Assembly (NCBI RefSeq): GCF_003391055.1
Contig: NZ_QUAJ01000006.1
Location: 62,001 to 126,000, forward strand
DNA from: Psychrilyobacter piezotolerans
GTDB lineage: Bacteria > Fusobacteriota > Fusobacteriia > Fusobacteriales > Fusobacteriaceae
DNA length: 64,000 nucleotides
Direction: 5' to 3'
A model generated the notes under the pieces. It saw nothing but the letters and a program-made list of their open reading frames with translations, had not been told where the DNA came from and ran no database searches. The position numbers and the translations under genes were made by a program. Shown here piece after piece: positions 6,122-63,629 of this stretch (position 1 is the first letter of the stretch; every line of letters begins with the position of its first letter).

Positions 6122-6172
6122 TATAACAAATAAGGGATGATAAGTTTATTTTATCATCCCTTATTTGTTATA
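6122..6172. repeat. 22-bp perfect inverted repeat containing iteron-like arms
   Basis: Arms 6122-6143 and 6151-6172 are perfectly complementary with a 7-base loop (GTTTATT). The right arm reads ATCCCTTATTTGTTATA, close to the iterons of the nearby origin. The dyad overlaps the stop codon of trmN6, so it may also act as its terminator, although no classical T-tract follows. Confidence 0.75.
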
Positions 6173-8826: not shown

Positions 8827-8844
8827 ATCATTTATAAATTATAA
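8827..8844 (+). repeat. Iteron-like 18-mer downstream of the initiator gene
   Basis: ATCATTTATAAATTATAA lies in the gap between the udk ribosome site and the rep stop codon. It matches the 12949 copy (ATCACTTATAAATTATAA) except at one base. Confidence 0.6.
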
Positions 8845-10569
8845 TCCTTTTTCTTTCTTTAATATCTTCAATATATAAATTTTTTCTATTGATTTGAAAA
8901 TTTTCTGGTGAATCGGCATAAATTTTTCTATATTTGAATCTACTTCAAACATTTTCTTTGCCTTTACTAATAATTCTTCTTTTTCCTTTTCTTCCATCTT
9001 TTCATATAGTTCCAACAAAACTTTATAGATTGGATTATTCAAGTCAACCTCTTCATCCACCTTTGGTTTAGGAGGTTCCACTATCTCAGCCTCTATTATC
9101 TCCAGATGCGATTGTTTCTCCTTGACTATCTTAGGTCTTTTGATTTTGTCTTCCCTCTTAGATGTTTTTATATCCTCCAAAAGATCTTTATCACCTTTTA
9201 CGTTTTTTAAGATCCCATTGATATAAGCCACCAGAGTTTTAGATATATCAGTTTTTAAGTTTGAATATAGAATATCTAAAATATGTATTGCTACCTTTTC
9301 TCCCTCTTCATTATATAACTTTATAATCTTATTCTCTGCTCTTTTATTCCAATTTTTAGAAACAAATATATTCCTTTTTGCCTTGGTTATAGCTTTTAGA
9401 GCAGCTTCCGACATCTCGTTGATATCTTTAATAATTGTTTTATATACCTCATTGGGTACCTCTAATCTGATCTGTTTTAGTGCTGAATTTTTCAGGGCTT
9501 TTTTCTTTTTCCCCTTCAAAATATAATCGGAAATATGACATTCTCCATCTTTATCCACGTTGTACTTAAATCTATAGGCATAACTTTTTTCTGCCTTCAA
9601 AGGGTAGACTTCATAGGTTAAAAGATAACCTTTTTCCACTAAAGCATCAAAAGATTTATTTATTCTTTTCATCACCTGTTTCATCTTACTTACTTCATAT
9701 TCCTTGATTTCCCCAGTCTTTAACACCTTTCTTATCCTGCTCTTTAGAGTTAATGGAATTATAGTTGCTAAAGTTTCTATCCTAAATTCACCTTCAGTAT
9801 TGGCAAATCTTTTCATACTTAAAAACTGATATATTTTTTCTGCAGCTCTATCAGATTTTCTCAAGACATTCAGTTGATGTCTATCAAAAATAGAGTAATG
9901 TTTTATCCTCAATTCCTCTATTATTCTATGATCTAATCTGACCTTATAGTAAACTTTCATCTTATTTGTTTTTATATTTTTTTCCTTAAATTTTTCATAT
10001 TTCACCAAATTAAGAGGTTCTTTATAAACCTCTCTGATTATATTCCCTGCAGCTTTTTTATTTCTGATCAATATTTTATATGTAGTTGCCTGTAAATTAT
10101 ATAGAGTTTCTTCCATCTTTCTATAATATTTCATAGAAAACTTTAATCCCAGGTAATCTATAACTTCCTCGATATTAAAGGTGATATACTCCTTTGTAGG
10201 ATCATCAGCCAAAATTTCTTGAAATTTATATAAAATAAAATAAAACACATTCTTTTCAAAATCTGAAGGCTGCTGATTTCTTATCCCTTCAAAATTATCC
10301 GTACTCAAAGAAGATCCGAATTTAATCCCTGCATTGGCTATTTCATATACCAAGTTTACATTTCTCTGCCTTTTAGATGTAAAAAATGGTAAAATTATGA
10401 ATAAAAAAGGTTGATTAATCGTATCTCTTATATCCATGTCTTCCAAATATAAAGACACTGTTTTAGTCGGGATAGTTTTAGGTTTATAACTTTTGATATC
10501 TATACTAAGGTCATTTTTGTTCCCTATCTCTAATATTTCTAATAGAGATCCTTGTTTTTTTTCAGACAT
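8839..10569 (-). CDS. Plasmid-type replication initiator (winged-helix Rep/RPA-like)
   Basis: A 576-residue protein with the layout of iteron-binding initiators. Residues about 90-340 contain two winged-helix-like regions: FEKNVFYFILYKFQEI..., then KMEETLYNLQATTYKI, DRAAEKIYQFLSMKRF and KMKQVMKRINKSFDALVEKGYLLTYEV. A long basic and acidic C-terminal half follows that I cannot assign, making it longer than common Rep_3 proteins. It is followed upstream (to 11.35 kb) by iteron repeats in AT-rich DNA, the expected arrangement for an initiator and its origin. The likely role is to bind these iterons and open the origin. The exact family (Rep_3 or RPA) is uncertain. Confidence 0.8.
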   Translation of the reverse strand: MSEKKQGSLLEILEIGNKNDLSIDIKSYKPKTIPTKTVSLYLEDMDIRDTINQPFLFIILPFFTSKRQRNVNLVYEIANAGIKFGSSLSTDNFEGIRNQQPSDFEKNVFYFILYKFQEILADDPTKEYITFNIEEVIDYLGLKFSMKYYRKMEETLYNLQATTYKILIRNKKAAGNIIREVYKEPLNLVKYEKFKEKNIKTNKMKVYYKVRLDHRIIEELRIKHYSIFDRHQLNVLRKSDRAAEKIYQFLSMKRFANTEGEFRIETLATIIPLTLKSRIRKVLKTGEIKEYEVSKMKQVMKRINKSFDALVEKGYLLTYEVYPLKAEKSYAYRFKYNVDKDGECHISDYILKGKKKKALKNSALKQIRLEVPNEVYKTIIKDINEMSEAALKAITKAKRNIFVSKNWNKRAENKIIKLYNEEGEKVAIHILDILYSNLKTDISKTLVAYINGILKNVKGDKDLLEDIKTSKREDKIKRPKIVKEKQSHLEIIEAEIVEPPKPKVDEEVDLNNPIYKVLLELYEKMEEKEKEELLVKAKKMFEVDSNIEKFMPIHQKIFKSIEKIYILKILKKEKGL

Positions 10570-11777
10570 TCCTTCCCCACCTTATCATCATTTTCAATTT
10601 ATAATTTTATCATCCTTTACAGGTTATAACATTTTTTCAACGTTTTTTCAAGTTTTATTTTTATTATCACGTATTATTTATAATCTGGTTTTTCTTAAAA
10701 AACCAGCTCAACCGATCTTTTACTGGCCTTTATTATAATCCTTTATTTACTATAATTTATTAACCATAGTATCTTTAGGAGTTTATTATTCATCCCTTAT
10801 TATTTATAATTAATATCTAAACTTACTATCAGCTATTTCCTTGATAATTCAAGGGTGCTTTATCATCACTGTATTATCAACTTAATTTAAACCCAATAAA
10901 TAAAAGGTTAATAATATAATCCTTTATTTATTATATTTTATTTTATTATTCTCTTTAGTAGAATTAGGCTTATATTTATAATCCTTCATTTATTATATTT
11001 CATTATCTTTTCATTTTATTTTATAAAGTTTCTTTATACCCTTTATTTTATTGATTCCGTTTATAATCACTAATAAAATATATTTATAATTATTTTAACA
11101 TCATCTATTTATTATAATTTTATTTTTTAACTATCCTTTATTTTTAAAGGGCTTTAATCAGCCTAAAATAATTAAAGTCAGGAAAATATAGTTTAGATAT
11201 ACAATCCTTTATTTATTATAAATCTATTTTATTTTCATTTTTATTTAGCCGAATAAAAATAAGCTTTCTTTATAATCCTTTATTACACATAAAAAAATAT
11301 CCGTTAATTAATAGGCTTAGTTATACAATCCTCTATTTATTATAAAAATAAAAAATGATTTCCTTTTTCCAGCCTGTATTTGCTGCTCTAGAGATAATAT
11401 ATCTTTTTTTATAAAAAGCTCTACATAATACATAAAACAATAATACATAAAACAACTATAAATTATTAAAGATAGTTCTGTCTGTTATTTAAGATTATTT
11501 TTTAAATTCAAAATCAAACAAGATTTATCTACACTATATAAAACTAATCACCAATAAACAGCAATTAAAAAATTATTAACTAGCAACTGATAAGGTTTAC
11601 TCACTAATTATACAAATTAATATCCAGAAAATAAAATACCAATACTATACATAGATAAAATGTATAAGATTTTAAATGTATTTAATTTTAACATTAGTAT
11701 ATCAATATAAATAAATTTACAGATTAGATAACTAAAAAAAAAGGATAAGACAACACTCGTCTTACCCTTAAAAATAA
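10570..11777. other. Iteron-type replication origin
   Basis: About 1.2 kb without genes. Near-identical 18-mers lie in direct orientation: ATCCTTTATTTACTATAA at 10738, ATCCCTTATTATTTATAA at 10792, ATCCTTTATTTATTATA at 10919, ATCCTTCATTTATTATA at 10981, ATCATCTATTTATTATAA at 11100, ATCCTTTATTTATTATAA at 11204 and ATCCTCTATTTATTATAA at 11328. Weaker copies are near 10611 and 11275. The last full copies share a longer block beginning TATACAATCC. Beyond 11.38 kb the DNA is almost pure A/T, with a 15-bp tandem repeat TAATACATAAAACAA near 11427-11456, a candidate unwinding region. No DnaA box TTATCCACA was found. Confidence 0.75.
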
Positions 11778-30508: not shown

Positions 30509-31378
30509 TTATTTTATAAATGTATAGTCTTCTTTTTCCATCATCTCTTTAATTTTTTCAAAATAATCCTTAACTTCTGAAGGAACTTTTTTCTTTACAG
30601 AAAAATTAAATCCTTTGGCAGTGTATTTTATAGATATTTTTTTGGGTTTTTCCGATAAATTTAGGTTTTTTAATAGATCCCTCAATTCATCCCTGTTAAA
30701 ATCCTTATATTCTTTTACAATATCAGATGTAGTCTTTTCAGATCTCAGCTTATTGACAACTTTATTTAATAGTTCAGCCTTATCTGCTCCTAAAATTTCT
30801 ATGATTTCCCTGATTTCTATGGGATAGTTGATAGCATTTTTTATCCTGTAATATGTTTTTTTACTGATATTATATCCGGTGATTATATCTTCAATAGATT
30901 TATCTTTTCTGGCAGCTTCCTTGTTAAATTTATAGGATTGCTCCAGTAAAGTTAAATTTTTTCTCTTTAAATTTTCATCGATAGAGATAGTGTCTAAAAG
31001 GCTGTATGGAGTATTTTTATCAAATATTACTACCCTGTCCTTGGCTTTAACTTCTACTTCTTCTGTGTAGAGTTCCTTTATGGCACTGGATCTTCGAAGA
31101 CCACTGATGATTCTAAATGTTCCCTCTTCCTTCTCCTGAAGATATATTATATTTAAGAGTCCTATAGCACTAATACTTTCTTTGAGTTCATTTAATTCCG
31201 AATCATCCATGGAAAGTCTGTTTATAAAGGTTAGGTCTTCAAAATCAACCTGGTCCAGGAGTTCAGGACGCATATGAACCATCCTTCCATATTGTTTTAC
31301 TATTTTTTCCTTTGGAAGGTCTATTGTTTCTTTTTTCGGCCCCCTGTTAAGTAAAGGATTATTTCCTAATCTACTCAT
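30509..31378 (-). CDS. parB: ParB-family partition protein
   Basis: A 289-residue DNA-binding protein. The ParB/Srx-like domain has box-like DSELNELKESISAIGLLNIIYLQ and FRIISGLRRSSAIKEL; the second replaces the usual GERRxRA with GLRRSSA, so CTP handling may differ. A helix-turn-helix follows (KSIEDIITGYNISKKTYYRIKNAI), then a basic C-terminus. It is translationally coupled to parA (TAATG overlap). It should bind a centromere site on this replicon. The divergence from chromosomal Spo0J proteins fits a plasmid or chromid type. Confidence 0.88.
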   Translation of the reverse strand: MSRLGNNPLLNRGPKKETIDLPKEKIVKQYGRMVHMRPELLDQVDFEDLTFINRLSMDDSELNELKESISAIGLLNIIYLQEKEEGTFRIISGLRRSSAIKELYTEEVEVKAKDRVVIFDKNTPYSLLDTISIDENLKRKNLTLLEQSYKFNKEAARKDKSIEDIITGYNISKKTYYRIKNAINYPIEIREIIEILGADKAELLNKVVNKLRSEKTTSDIVKEYKDFNRDELRDLLKNLNLSEKPKKISIKYTAKGFNFSVKKKVPSEVKDYFEKIKEMMEKEDYTFIK

Positions 31379-32151
31379 TAACTCTCCTCCCTTTCAATTA
31401 TTTCAACACAAAGACCCTTATAATCTTTGGCTCCATTACTTCTGGGAGCATAATCAAAGATACTGAGTCCATGGGAAGATGCTTCTGCTACTTTTATATT
31501 TCTTCTGATTAAAGTTTTAAACATATTCTCTCCGAAGAATTCCTTTAACTGCCCGATAACTTCTACATGAAGTTTAGATCTGGAATCTACCATGGTAGCA
31601 AAGATCCCGCCGATCCTAAGGTCATCGTTCATCCTATGAGTAACGATATCTATAGTATCCATGAGTTCTACAATTCCTTCTAAGGCATAAAATTCTGTCT
31701 GAACCGGGATATATACCTCGTGGGAAGCCATAAGGGCGTTGAATGTAAGGGTATCTAAACTAGGAGGACAGTCAATGAGGACATAGTCATATCCATATAC
31801 ATCTTTTAAAATCTCCTTTAGCAGACTCTCCTTCCCTGGAACTCCCCCTAATTCTAAATTAACCTTGGACATCTTTATATTAGTTGGAAGGATATCGGCA
31901 AATGAAGTTTCTACAACTATATCACCAAAATTTAATTTACTTGTTCCAAAAGACTTGGCCTTTAGGAGGTCATATACTGTATAGTCTAGATTTCTTTTGT
32001 CCAGACCAAAACCAGAGGTTAGATTTCCCTGGGGGTCAAAGTCGATAGCTAAAACTTTTTTTCCCAGACCATGCAAACCTGCGGCTATGTTTTGAGTAGA
32101 CGTAGTCTTAGCTACCCCACCTTTTTGATTTAAAATTGAAATTATCTTCAT
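31378..32151 (-). CDS. parA: ParA/Soj-family partition ATPase
   Basis: A 257-residue Walker-type ATPase. The deviant Walker A is NQKGGVAKTTS (residues 8-18, Ala in place of the usual Gly), DFDPQGNLTSGFG gives the switch I region, and DYVLIDCPPSLDTLTFNAL is Walker B. VPVQTEFYALEGIVELMDTI is typical. There is no N-terminal HTH, so it is the short type Ib/Soj form. It is first in parA-parB-hypothetical and, with ParB, should move replicon copies over the nucleoid. Confidence 0.93.
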   Translation of the reverse strand: MKIISILNQKGGVAKTTSTQNIAAGLHGLGKKVLAIDFDPQGNLTSGFGLDKRNLDYTVYDLLKAKSFGTSKLNFGDIVVETSFADILPTNIKMSKVNLELGGVPGKESLLKEILKDVYGYDYVLIDCPPSLDTLTFNALMASHEVYIPVQTEFYALEGIVELMDTIDIVTHRMNDDLRIGGIFATMVDSRSKLHVEVIGQLKEFFGENMFKTLIRRNIKVAEASSHGLSIFDYAPRSNGAKDYKGLCVEIIEREES

Positions 32152-32927: not shown

Positions 32928-34466
32928 ATGAAACAGAATAGTATAGTTATTTTAGATTTTGGTTCTCAATATAACCAATTGATTGCAAGAAGAGTAAGGG
33001 AAATGGGTGTTTATGCCGAGGTCGTTCCTTATTTTGAAGACTTAGAGAAGATAAAAGCTAGAAATCCAAAGGGAATAATCCTGTCTGGAGGACCTGCATC
33101 TGTATATTTAGAGGGAGCTCCTACAGTAGATAAAGCCATGTTTGACTTAGATATACCGATCCTTGGAATTTGTTATGGAATGCAGCTTACCCAGCATCTA
33201 CTTGGCGGGGAAGTAGCCAAGGCCGATAAGCAGGAATTTGGAAAAGCTGAAGTTATAATAGATGATGAAAATTCTCCTTTTTTCTACGGAATAGAAGACA
33301 ATACCCAGGTATGGATGTCCCATGGAGATCACGTTACCAAGATAGCTCCGGGATTTGAAAAAATAGCTCATACTGCTTCATCTATAGCTACACTGTATAA
33401 TGCTGAAAGAAATATCTATAATGTGCAGTTTCATCCTGAGGTAACTCATTCGGTAGATGGACATCAAATGCTTAGAAACTTCGTATTCGATGTATGTAAA
33501 TGTGAAGAAAACTGGTCTATGGGAAATTATATAGAACAGACTGTAAAAGAGATAAAGGAAACTGTAGGAGATAAGAAAGTAATCTTAGCTCTATCTGGCG
33601 GGGTAGACTCATCGGTAGCTGCAGTACTTATCCATAAAGCCATTGGAGACCAGCTTAGCTGTTTCTTCGTAGATACAGGTCTTATGAGAAAAAATGAAGC
33701 TGAAAAAGTAATGAAAACTTATGGGGAACACTACCATATGAATATAGAGTGTGTAGATGCTGAAGACAGATTCTTAAATAAATTAAAGGGTGTTTCAGAT
33801 CCTGAAACTAAGAGAAAGATAATCGGACATGAATTTATTGCAATCTTCGATGAACAAAAACAAAAGATGAAAGATGCAGAATTCCTGGCTCAAGGTACTA
33901 TCTACCCGGATGTTATCGAATCTCAATCTGTAAAGGGACCATCTGCTACTATCAAATCTCATCACAATGTAGGTGGATTACCAGAAGAGATGGATTTCAA
34001 ATTATTGGAACCGTTAAGAGAATTATTCAAAGATGAGGTAAGAAAAGTTGGAAGAGAATTGGGTATCCCTGATCATATGATCGACAGACATCCATTCCCG
34101 GGACCTGGTTTAGGAATCAGAATCATAGGGGAAGTGGATAAGGAAAAGGCTGATATCTTAAGGGAAGCAGATGATATCTTTATCTCGGAATTAAGAGCTG
34201 CCAACCTATATCAAGAGGTAAGTCAGGCATTCGTAGTATTATTACCTGTAAAATCTGTAGGAGTAATGGGAGACGAAAGAACCTATGAATATACCGCAGT
34301 ATTAAGATCAGCAGATACAATAGACTTTATGACTGCTACATGGTCACACCTTCCGTATGAATTCTTAGGAAGAGTATCCAACAGAATCATAAATGAAGTT
34401 AAGGGAATCAACAGATTAGCCTATGATATTTCTTCTAAACCACCTGCAACTATAGAGTGGGAGTGA
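32928..34466 (+). CDS. guaA: GMP synthase (glutamine-hydrolysing)
   Basis: A 512-residue two-domain enzyme converting XMP to GMP. The N-terminal class I glutaminase has [12 protein letters not shown], the nucleophile Cys in [10 protein letters not shown] (near residue 83) and the His/Glu pair in [10 protein letters not shown]. The ATP pyrophosphatase has the P-loop [13 protein letters not shown]. The C-terminal dimerisation domain ends KPPATIEWE, the normal end of the family. The reading frame is intact although the prophage begins right after it. Expression runs from a TTGACA promoter through the riboswitch. Confidence 0.97.
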
Positions 34467-62814: not shown

Positions 62815-63495
62815 CTATGCCTTATTCAAAATCCAAACTACTTTACCGCAAACTTTGAAATCATCATCTTCTCTAATTTCTCTATCTGGATAATCTTTAT
62901 TATCGGAAATTAAATAACATCTATCTTCAATACACTTATATCTTTTTACTAATGCTTCATCACCATAGAGGAACACGCCTATATCGTTCTGCCCTACTTC
63001 TACATCTTTTTTGATAAGAACTACAGAACCATTATTTATTGTTGTTTCCATAGAATCTCCATCAACGGTGATACCTACACAACCTTTTCCCATCATTAAT
63101 GGTAAAGAAAGGTAATCGCTAGGTTCTGGATCAGGAGTTCTTCCAATTCCGGCTGAAACAGAATCATAAATCGGAACTTGTATATATTCACCTTCTATTA
63201 CTTCGATATTAGACTTTTCTTTTAAAGTAGTTTCGGAAGTCCCGAAATCATTATCATCTAAATACCCTACTATTTTGTATAACTCTTTAAAATCTATTTT
63301 TAAAGCAGATGCTAATTTTTTTATTAAAAAAGGGTTTATTTTTAATAATTGTCCTTTTTCAATTCTAGAAATAAGAGATTTGTTTATGTCTGCTTTAACA
63401 GAAAGCTGATTAACTTTTAACTCTTTTTTTTCTCTCGCATCTTTGAGTAATCTTGCTAATTTCATTCTATTTTCATAATTAACTTCATATGACAT
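62815..63495 (-). CDS. CI-type phage repressor with S24 protease domain
   Basis: A 226-residue repressor from the ATG at 63495 (MSYEVNYENR), chosen because AGGAG lies before it; a longer upstream frame adds an implausible hydrophobic start. The XRE helix-turn-helix is at about 12-65 (LKDAREKKELKVNQLSVKADINKSLISRIEKG). The LexA-like C-terminal domain has the cleavage Ala-Gly (A115-G116) in SVSAGIG, Ser148 in VDGDSMET and Lys184 in ALVKRY. RecA-triggered self-cleavage is expected, so the prophage is SOS-inducible. Operators lie just upstream. Confidence 0.9.
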   Translation of the reverse strand: MSYEVNYENRMKLARLLKDAREKKELKVNQLSVKADINKSLISRIEKGQLLKINPFLIKKLASALKIDFKELYKIVGYLDDNDFGTSETTLKEKSNIEVIEGEYIQVPIYDSVSAGIGRTPDPEPSDYLSLPLMMGKGCVGITVDGDSMETTINNGSVVLIKKDVEVGQNDIGVFLYGDEALVKRYKCIEDRCYLISDNKDYPDREIREDDDFKVCGKVVWILNKA

Positions 63496-63535
63496 AATTT
63501 TACTCCTTTTATTTACTGTCTTACTTAATATAATA

Positions 63536-63629
63536 CTATACAAAATGATACAAAAGTAACACTTTCTAAAAAAACTGTTTACAAAAGTAACGCCATGTTG
63601 TATACTTTTAAAAAGATACAAAAGTAACG
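63536..63629. promoter_or_regulatory. CI/Cro operator array and divergent promoters
   Basis: Three near-identical direct sites: GATACAAAAGTAAC (63547-63560), TTTACAAAAGTAACG (63578-63591) and GATACAAAAGTAACG (63615-63629), plus a partial inverted one TGTATACTTTTA (63599-63610). A further GAAAAGTAACGG lies after the next gene near 63808. The third touches the ribosome site of the Cro-like gene. Confidence 0.8.

What the first reader, a model, noticed from the sequence alone, without database searches (positions are those of the whole stretch)
8839..11456. Iteron origin and plasmid-type initiator on a replicon carrying essential biosynthesis genes
The sequence shows at least seven near-identical 18-mers in one orientation, an adjacent winged-helix initiator gene and an almost pure A/T stretch. 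Housekeeping genes (guaA, guaB, ilvBCDEN, udk, xth) and ParAB lie within 25 kb on the same DNA. Together this suggests a chromid or megaplasmid in the Fusobacteriota. The initiator is longer than usual, with a C-terminal half I cannot assign.
Basis: partly seen in the sequence, partly recalled or inferred. Interest (0 to 1): 0.8.

Follow-up and report, generated by a model that had tools for sequence, protein, structure and literature searches.

The report
Plasmid-type initiators replace DnaA in Fusobacteriaceae
The window holds the replication origin of a second chromosome, and its starter gene has a sister that sits where the near-universal starter gene dnaA should be on the main chromosome of a whole bacterial family (including Fusobacterium), none of whose 61 examined genomes has dnaA, so these bacteria appear to copy all their chromosomes with plasmid-style machinery.

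Summary
A 576-aa Rep gene (8839-10569, minus strand) lies beside nine iterons in one orientation (10609-11344), better conserved in relatives than their spacers. Closed relatives carry this locus on a 0.87-1.15 Mb second replicon that holds the only guaA. Strand-corrected GC skew switches at Rep. The chromid reading stands.

The larger result lies outside the window. DnaA is absent from all 61 Fusobacteriaceae genomes searched (47 near-complete) but present in 36 of 37 other Fusobacteriota. In the dnaA slot of the main chromosome (mnmG-mnmE-jag-yidC-rnpA-rpmH / X / recF-dciA-gyrB-gyrA) sits a paralogue of the window's Rep. Beside it is a different, family-wide iteron (TATGTAYAYnnnYAATAATAWT), in one orientation, mostly spaced by whole helical turns. 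Skew switches there in both chromosomes sampled. Both Reps model as twin winged-helix initiators; the best solved match is Vibrio cholerae RctB. No DnaA domain was found.

Best explanation: in the Fusobacteriaceae ancestor a plasmid-type Rep/iteron module replaced DnaA/oriC in place, and a paralogous module drives the chromid. That Rep initiates replication is inferred, not shown. I found no report of this, but only open-licence papers were searchable.

The parts
8839..10569 (-). Chromid replication initiator (Rep), 576 aa: disordered N-terminus (about 1-54), twin winged helix (about 100-340), helical C-terminal module (about 388-468 and 513-573)
   Evidence: ORF; weak Pfam RPA; AlphaFold model pLDDT 65; Foldseek best matches RctB domains 2-3 (E 1e-6), then Pi and RepE54
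10570..11777 (.). Origin region between rep and the RlmL-like gene; 80% AT, 85% AT in 10900-11160 (candidate unwinding region)
   Evidence: position conserved in relatives
10609..10628 (+). Iteron 1, about 40 nt upstream of the rep start; degenerate; candidate autoregulatory operator (inferred)
   Evidence: recurs at the same offset in G007, G006, G005, G003
10735..10754 (+). Iteron 2, ATAATCCTTTATTTACTATA
10789..10808 (+). Iteron 3 (degenerate)
10916..10935 (+). Iteron 4, consensus ATAATCCTTTATTTATTATA
10978..10997 (+). Iteron 5
11097..11116 (+). Iteron 6 (degenerate)
11201..11220 (+). Iteron 7
11272..11291 (+). Iteron 8 (degenerate)
11325..11344 (+). Iteron 9
6122..6172 (.). Inverted pair of iteron-like 20-mers outside the origin; candidate titration or handcuffing site, or a terminator hairpin that resembles the iteron
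   Evidence: conserved in G007:C3:94829/94861 and G006:C1:299228/299261
30509..32151 (-). parB (30509-31378) and parA (31378-32151), partition genes of the chromid
   Evidence: Pfam ParB_N and AAA_31
32928..34466 (+). guaA, glutamine-hydrolysing GMP synthase, the only copy in the genome
   Evidence: NCBIfam E 6.5e-250; single hit in the genome

Best explanation
The window carries the origin and initiator of a chromid in a Fusobacteriaceae bacterium. Rep, a twin winged-helix protein, would bind the nine directly repeated 20-bp iterons, melt the adjacent AT-rich DNA and recruit the DnaB helicase, with DciA as likely loader; its C-terminal helical module is a candidate helicase contact. Copy number would be set by autorepression (iteron 1 lies about 40 nt upstream of rep) and by titration. 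The same kind of system drives the main chromosome: in the ancestor of the Fusobacteriaceae, dnaA and its boxes were lost and a plasmid-derived Rep with its own iterons took the exact dnaA/oriC site. Chromosome and chromid therefore run on two paralogous initiators with different iterons, with no DnaA in the cell. Shown by sequence: absence of DnaA, position of Rep, iterons, skew switch, winged-helix fold (predicted), essential gene on the chromid. Inferred: that Rep binds the iterons, opens DNA and loads helicase; that it is essential; and the direction of the replacement.
For: DnaA domain IV (PF08299): 0 of 61 Fusobacteriaceae genomes, 47 near-complete, against 36 of 37 other Fusobacteriota, the exception being an 82%-complete draft. 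The DnaA ATPase model found only weak, IstB/DnaC-like matches in the family. Rep: 59 of 61 Fusobacteriaceae and 14 of 14 genera; outside the family only on the plasmid of one genome that keeps dnaA (Haliovirga). Synteny: sister families have mnmG-mnmE-jag-yidC-rnpA-rpmH | dnaA-recF-(dciA)-gyrB-gyrA; Fusobacteriaceae have the same order with Rep in place of DnaA (F. vincentii). Strand-corrected skew switches at Rep in two main chromosomes (G027, G031:C1) and two chromids (G007:C3, G031:C2). Chromosomal iterons: 164 in one orientation against 9 in the other over 38 origins, 2 hits in five shuffled sets, spacings peaking at 104-105 bp. Four sites in the F. vincentii origin, not used to build the model, have the same orientation, spaced 93, 102 and 52. 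Whole-genome pattern search: enriched over the reversed pattern in Fusobacteriaceae, not in the two DnaA-bearing outgroups tested. DnaA boxes: none exact in 33 kb of Fusobacteriaceae origins. Fold: RctB, Pi, RepE. Single guaA on the chromid.
Against: No experiment was done. Structure models are of moderate confidence (pLDDT 64-65, pTM 0.43). Two genomes of the family (G009, 93% complete; G025, 70%) show neither Rep nor DnaA, perhaps because of assembly gaps. In the window's own genus recF-gyrB lie elsewhere, so only the rpmH side of the slot is conserved there. Iterons lie 53-127 bp apart rather than in the tight arrays usual for iteron plasmids. Skew was sampled on four replicons and does not prove which protein initiates.
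Confidence: 0.88

Rival explanations
1. The window is only an ordinary chromid or megaplasmid origin, and the main chromosome is still started by DnaA, too divergent to be detected or lost in assembly gaps.
For: Absence in drafts is always uncertain; [quoted passage not shown] nucleatum polymorphum.
Against: 0 of 61 genomes, 47 near-complete and several of one to three contigs; the dnaA slot is occupied by Rep; no exact DnaA box in 33 kb of origin DNA. An ORF with recF and gyrB downstream, as described in that paper, matches the position of Rep.
Confidence: 0.05
2. DnaA is lost, but chromosomal replication starts without a dedicated initiator at many sites or by recombination, as considered for some cyanobacteria; the Rep gene is a leftover of an integrated plasmid.
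For: DnaA-free cyanobacteria exist (PMC7198777).
Against: Skew of sampled chromosomes has a sharp single switch at Rep, whereas the cyanobacterial cases have irregular profiles. Rep and its iterons are conserved across 14 genera, which a leftover would not be.
Confidence: 0.04
3. The repeats are binding sites of a transcription regulator or low-complexity AT repeats, not replication iterons.
For: The region is AT-rich; iteron-like sites also occur in other intergenic regions within tens of kilobases.
Against: Count exceeds shuffles, conservation exceeds the spacers, orientation and position are fixed next to an initiator gene at the skew switch. The dispersed sites fit initiator titration at least as well.
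Confidence: 0.03

Closest known systems
RctB/ori2 of Vibrio cholerae chromosome 2
   Same: Second-replicon initiator of similar size; best solved-structure match of both modelled Reps (RctB domains 2-3); repeated sites beside the gene
   Different: About 11% identity. RctB drives a secondary chromosome in cells that keep DnaA; here a fold relative also drives the main chromosome and DnaA is absent. No crtS-like cross site was established
Iteron plasmid initiators: RepE (F), Pi (R6K), Rep_3 and RPA (PF10134) families
   Same: Twin winged helix, directly repeated iterons, rep next to ori; weak RPA match in 18 of 23 members
   Different: Iterons 53-127 bp apart; extra C-terminal module; runs 1-3.8 Mb chromosomes
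DnaA/oriC
   Same: Same chromosomal slot between rpmH and recF-gyrB
   Different: No AAA+ or DnaA domain IV, no DnaA boxes
DnaA-free bacteria (insect endosymbionts, some cyanobacteria; PMC7198777)
   Same: dnaA lost
   Different: Those lack a recognised replacement; here a replacement initiator and iteron origin occupy the dnaA site across a family that includes cultured, non-endosymbiotic species
Ilyobacter polytropus chromosome II / pILYOP01 (NC_014633; PMC3035301)
   Same: Orthologous chromid with the same Rep at base 15, followed by xth, udk and guaA
   Different: Its rep is annotated as hypothetical protein; the genome paper contains no mention of dnaA
Integrative suppression in E. coli (own knowledge)
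   Same: An integrated plasmid origin replicates the chromosome when DnaA fails
   Different: A laboratory suppressor there; here a natural, family-wide, in-place replacement

Membership tests
Chromid | Plasmid-type replication and partition genes | tested here: met
   Rep with iterons and ParAB; but in this family the main chromosome also has plasmid-type replication
Chromid | Carries a core gene found on the main chromosome of relatives | tested here: met
   Single guaA on the chromid in six of six genomes, on the chromosome in F. gastrosuis
Chromid | Separate replicon | tested here: inconclusive
   The window genome is a draft (contig of 137,803 bp); orthologues lie on separate 0.87-1.15 Mb contigs in G007, G006, G020, G084 and I. 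polytropus
Chromid | Vertically inherited within a lineage | tested here: met
   Chromid Reps form one clade (100/100) spanning several genera
Iteron-type replication origin | Several direct repeats next to the initiator gene | tested here: met
   Nine in one orientation; above shuffles
Iteron-type replication origin | Twin winged-helix initiator | tested here: met
   Foldseek matches RctB, Pi, RepE54 at prob 1.0, on moderate-confidence models
Iteron-type replication origin | Initiator binds the iterons and starts replication | not testable with these tools
   Needs footprinting and marker-frequency data; indirect support from the skew switch
RctB family | Sequence homology to RctB | tested here: not met
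   Only fold-level match at about 11% identity; no RctB hit in Pfam, NCBIfam or PDB sequence searches
RPA (PF10134) family | Match above Pfam's curated cut-off | tested here: inconclusive
   Window Rep 20.1 bits against 27; three chromosomal Reps pass (27.9-32.1 bits), one at 26.6 falls short
DnaA | AAA+ ATPase and domain IV | tested here: not met
   No DnaA domain in any of 23 Reps; none in 61 genomes

The most novel reading that the evidence does not exclude
An entire family of bacteria, including Fusobacterium, Cetobacterium, Propionigenium and Ilyobacter, has dispensed with DnaA. A plasmid-derived iteron initiator was substituted for dnaA in its ancestral chromosomal slot and starts replication of the main chromosome, while a paralogue with different iterons starts the chromid.
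Probability: 0.85. Interest if true: 0.95.

Novelty: new variant of a known kind. Interest (0 to 1): 0.9.

Why it matters
DnaA is treated as the near-universal bacterial initiator; a 2020 paper knew of no free-living dnaA-less species outside the cyanobacteria (PMC7198777), and a 2026 survey still names only some intracellular symbionts as lacking it (PMC13342612). A whole family with an identified replacement would show that initiators can be exchanged in nature, would explain why the origin of Fusobacterium was only tentatively placed (PMC1924603), and would offer a clean system for asking how a plasmid copy-control device becomes a once-per-cycle chromosomal one. It also offers an ori for genetic tools and a lineage-specific target in an oral pathobiont.

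Tried and rejected
Raw GC skew of the window: uninformative, follows gene orientation; replaced by third-position skew separated by strand. Promoter-like sites around rep: no more than shuffles. NCBIfam and PHROGs gave no assignment of Rep; phage collection no match. Profile search of PDB sequences returned only weak eukaryotic winged-helix hits (ETS, cullin), consistent with a winged helix and nothing more. The Rep3 hit on contig C8 is weak and was not pursued. Rayleigh test of spacings supports a period near 10.5 bp, but related species are not independent, so its p-value is not used. The tree does not firmly resolve whether chromosomal Reps are one clade (support 32/41; the chromid clade is 100/100), and it is not rooted, so the direction plasmid-to-chromosome rests on Haliovirga keeping dnaA while carrying a plasmid Rep. 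Ten literature searches found no prior report; subscription journals and preprints were not covered.

Full report
What is in the window. The window is G000:C6:62001-126000, part of a 3.36 Mb draft genome of 86 contigs, 99.8% complete. Upstream of its start lie nine copies of a 20-mer with consensus ATAATCCTTTATTTATTATA, all on the + strand. Seven 18-mers within three mismatches compare with 2-3 in 28 of 30 shuffles, 4 in one and 5 in one. Across four relatives the sites are 92% identical against 70% outside (permutation p 2e-4). Spacings are 53-127 bp. The AT content (85% in 10900-11160) is high but not the highest in the window.

Chromid. Closed relatives place the orthologue on a separate replicon: G007:C3 (1,146,430 bp), G006:C1 (1,044,673), Ilyobacter polytropus C2/pILYOP01 (961,624), G084:C2 (965,686), G020:C4 (869,888). 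guaA is single-copy and on the chromid in all six chromid-bearing genomes, but on the chromosome in F. gastrosuis. Third-position skew separated by gene strand switches at Rep on G007:C3 (plus genes about 0 before, +0.29 after; minus genes -0.24 before, +0.14 after) and at base 1 of the I. polytropus chromid; in the window's own contig minus-strand genes go from -0.25 to +0.01 across Rep. Raw skew hides this because genes on both sides point the same way.

No DnaA in the family. A DnaA search of the own genome found nothing while 13 of 14 control genomes rang. Among 60 relatives, every sister-family genome had a strong DnaA and no Fusobacteriaceae genome did; weak hits there look like IstB/DnaC-type ATPases (that identity is inferred from their size and score). 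With the specific domain IV model: 0 of 61 Fusobacteriaceae, 36 of 37 other Fusobacteriota. Rep shows the converse: 59 of 61 in the family, and outside it only the plasmid of G038 (Haliovirga), which keeps DnaA (identity by record length).

Rep sits in the dnaA slot. In sister families the order is mnmG-mnmE-jag-yidC-rnpA-rpmH, divergent, then dnaA-recF-(dciA)-gyrB-gyrA. In Fusobacteriaceae the order is the same with Rep in place of DnaA. F. vincentii SB055 shows it too; its 2.1 Mb record is labelled a plasmid but carries this chromosomal locus. In the window's genus the recF side has moved away. Skew switches at this Rep in F. gastrosuis (between 600 and 620 kb, Rep at 609 kb) and I. polytropus chromosome I.

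Chromosomal iterons. Between Rep and rpmH lies a conserved 22-mer, TATGTAYAYnnnYAATAATAWT, with the central spacer always 5 nt in the copies found by a search that allowed 4-6. Over 38 distinct origins 164 sites point one way and 9 the other; five shuffled sets gave 2 hits, and 63 kb of rep coding sequence gave 6. Spacings peak at 104-105, with minor peaks at 53, 56, 70, 84, 93 and 116-117. Since the matrix was built from these origins, two outside tests matter: F. vincentii, not in the set, has four sites of the same orientation (spaced 93, 102, 52), and a genome-wide pattern search finds 26 matches against 3 for the reversed pattern in G000 but 10 against 15 and 4 against 4 in the DnaA-bearing G038 and G042. 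DnaA boxes: none exact in 33 kb. The chromosomal matrix has no hit in the 64-kb window; in G007 all chromosomal-motif matches are on C2 and most chromid-motif matches on C3. The two systems thus look separate.

The protein. Models of the chromid Rep and a chromosomal Rep (pLDDT 65 and 64) both match RctB domains 2-3 best (E about 1e-6), then RepE and Pi. Pfam RPA is weakly matched by 18 of 23; DnaA domains by none. The C-terminal half is a module also found behind a canonical Rep3_N/Rep3_C initiator on a 50-kb plasmid of G006, so it looks like an addition shared among initiators of this phylum; a role in helicase recruitment is a guess.

Evolution. The tree puts the chromid Reps in one clade (100/100), with plasmid Reps of Haliovirga and pILYOP02 on that side; unity of the chromosomal Reps is compatible but unsupported (32/41), and the root is by midpoint only. 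The simplest history is a plasmid Rep that took over the chromosome of the family's ancestor in the dnaA slot. That order is inferred.

Literature. PMC1924603 placed the F. [quoted passage not shown] The I. polytropus paper does not mention dnaA. PMC7198777 knew of no free-living dnaA-less species outside cyanobacteria; PMC13342612 names only some symbionts. No report of this replacement was found in ten searches, limited to open-licence papers, so priority is not certain.

What is shown and what is not. Shown: gene content, position, repeats, skew, fold prediction. Not shown: binding, melting, helicase loading, essentiality. Unexplained: G009 and G025, with neither DnaA nor Rep; and why iterons are about ten helical turns apart rather than adjacent.

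Noticed in passing
window 36193-59120 (approximate): Prophage with contractile tail on the minus strand: terminase, portal, head, sheath, tape measure and baseplate genes; an S24-peptidase/HTH repressor-like gene lies at 62815-63621. It disturbs the skew right of the origin.
   Followed up: partly
window 6122-6172, 6953, 13051, 16291, 16813; G000:C28:18479-18530: Chromid iteron-like sites away from the origin, two of the places as inverted pairs conserved in relatives; candidate titration or handcuffing sites.
   Followed up: partly
G075:C1 about 1.27-1.47 Mb; G031:C1 within about 45 kb of the origin: Chromosomal iteron matches are dispersed around the origin, recalling the scatter of DnaA boxes; possible regulon or titration system of the new initiator.
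   Followed up: partly
L227 (NZ_CP084075.1): A 2.1 Mb 'plasmid pSB055A' of Fusobacterium vincentii carries the chromosomal rnpA-rpmH-Rep-recF-gyrB locus and is probably the mislabelled chromosome.
   Followed up: partly
L205:6865-8346; L204; L212; L213: Fusobacteriota plasmid initiators of Rep_3 type share the C-terminal module of the chromosomal Rep.
   Followed up: partly
L206:3918-5740 (G064:C6): Decayed second copy of the chromosomal Rep with many stops, next to an intact one.
   Followed up: no
G009, G025: Two draft genomes of the family in which neither DnaA nor Rep was found.
   Followed up: partly
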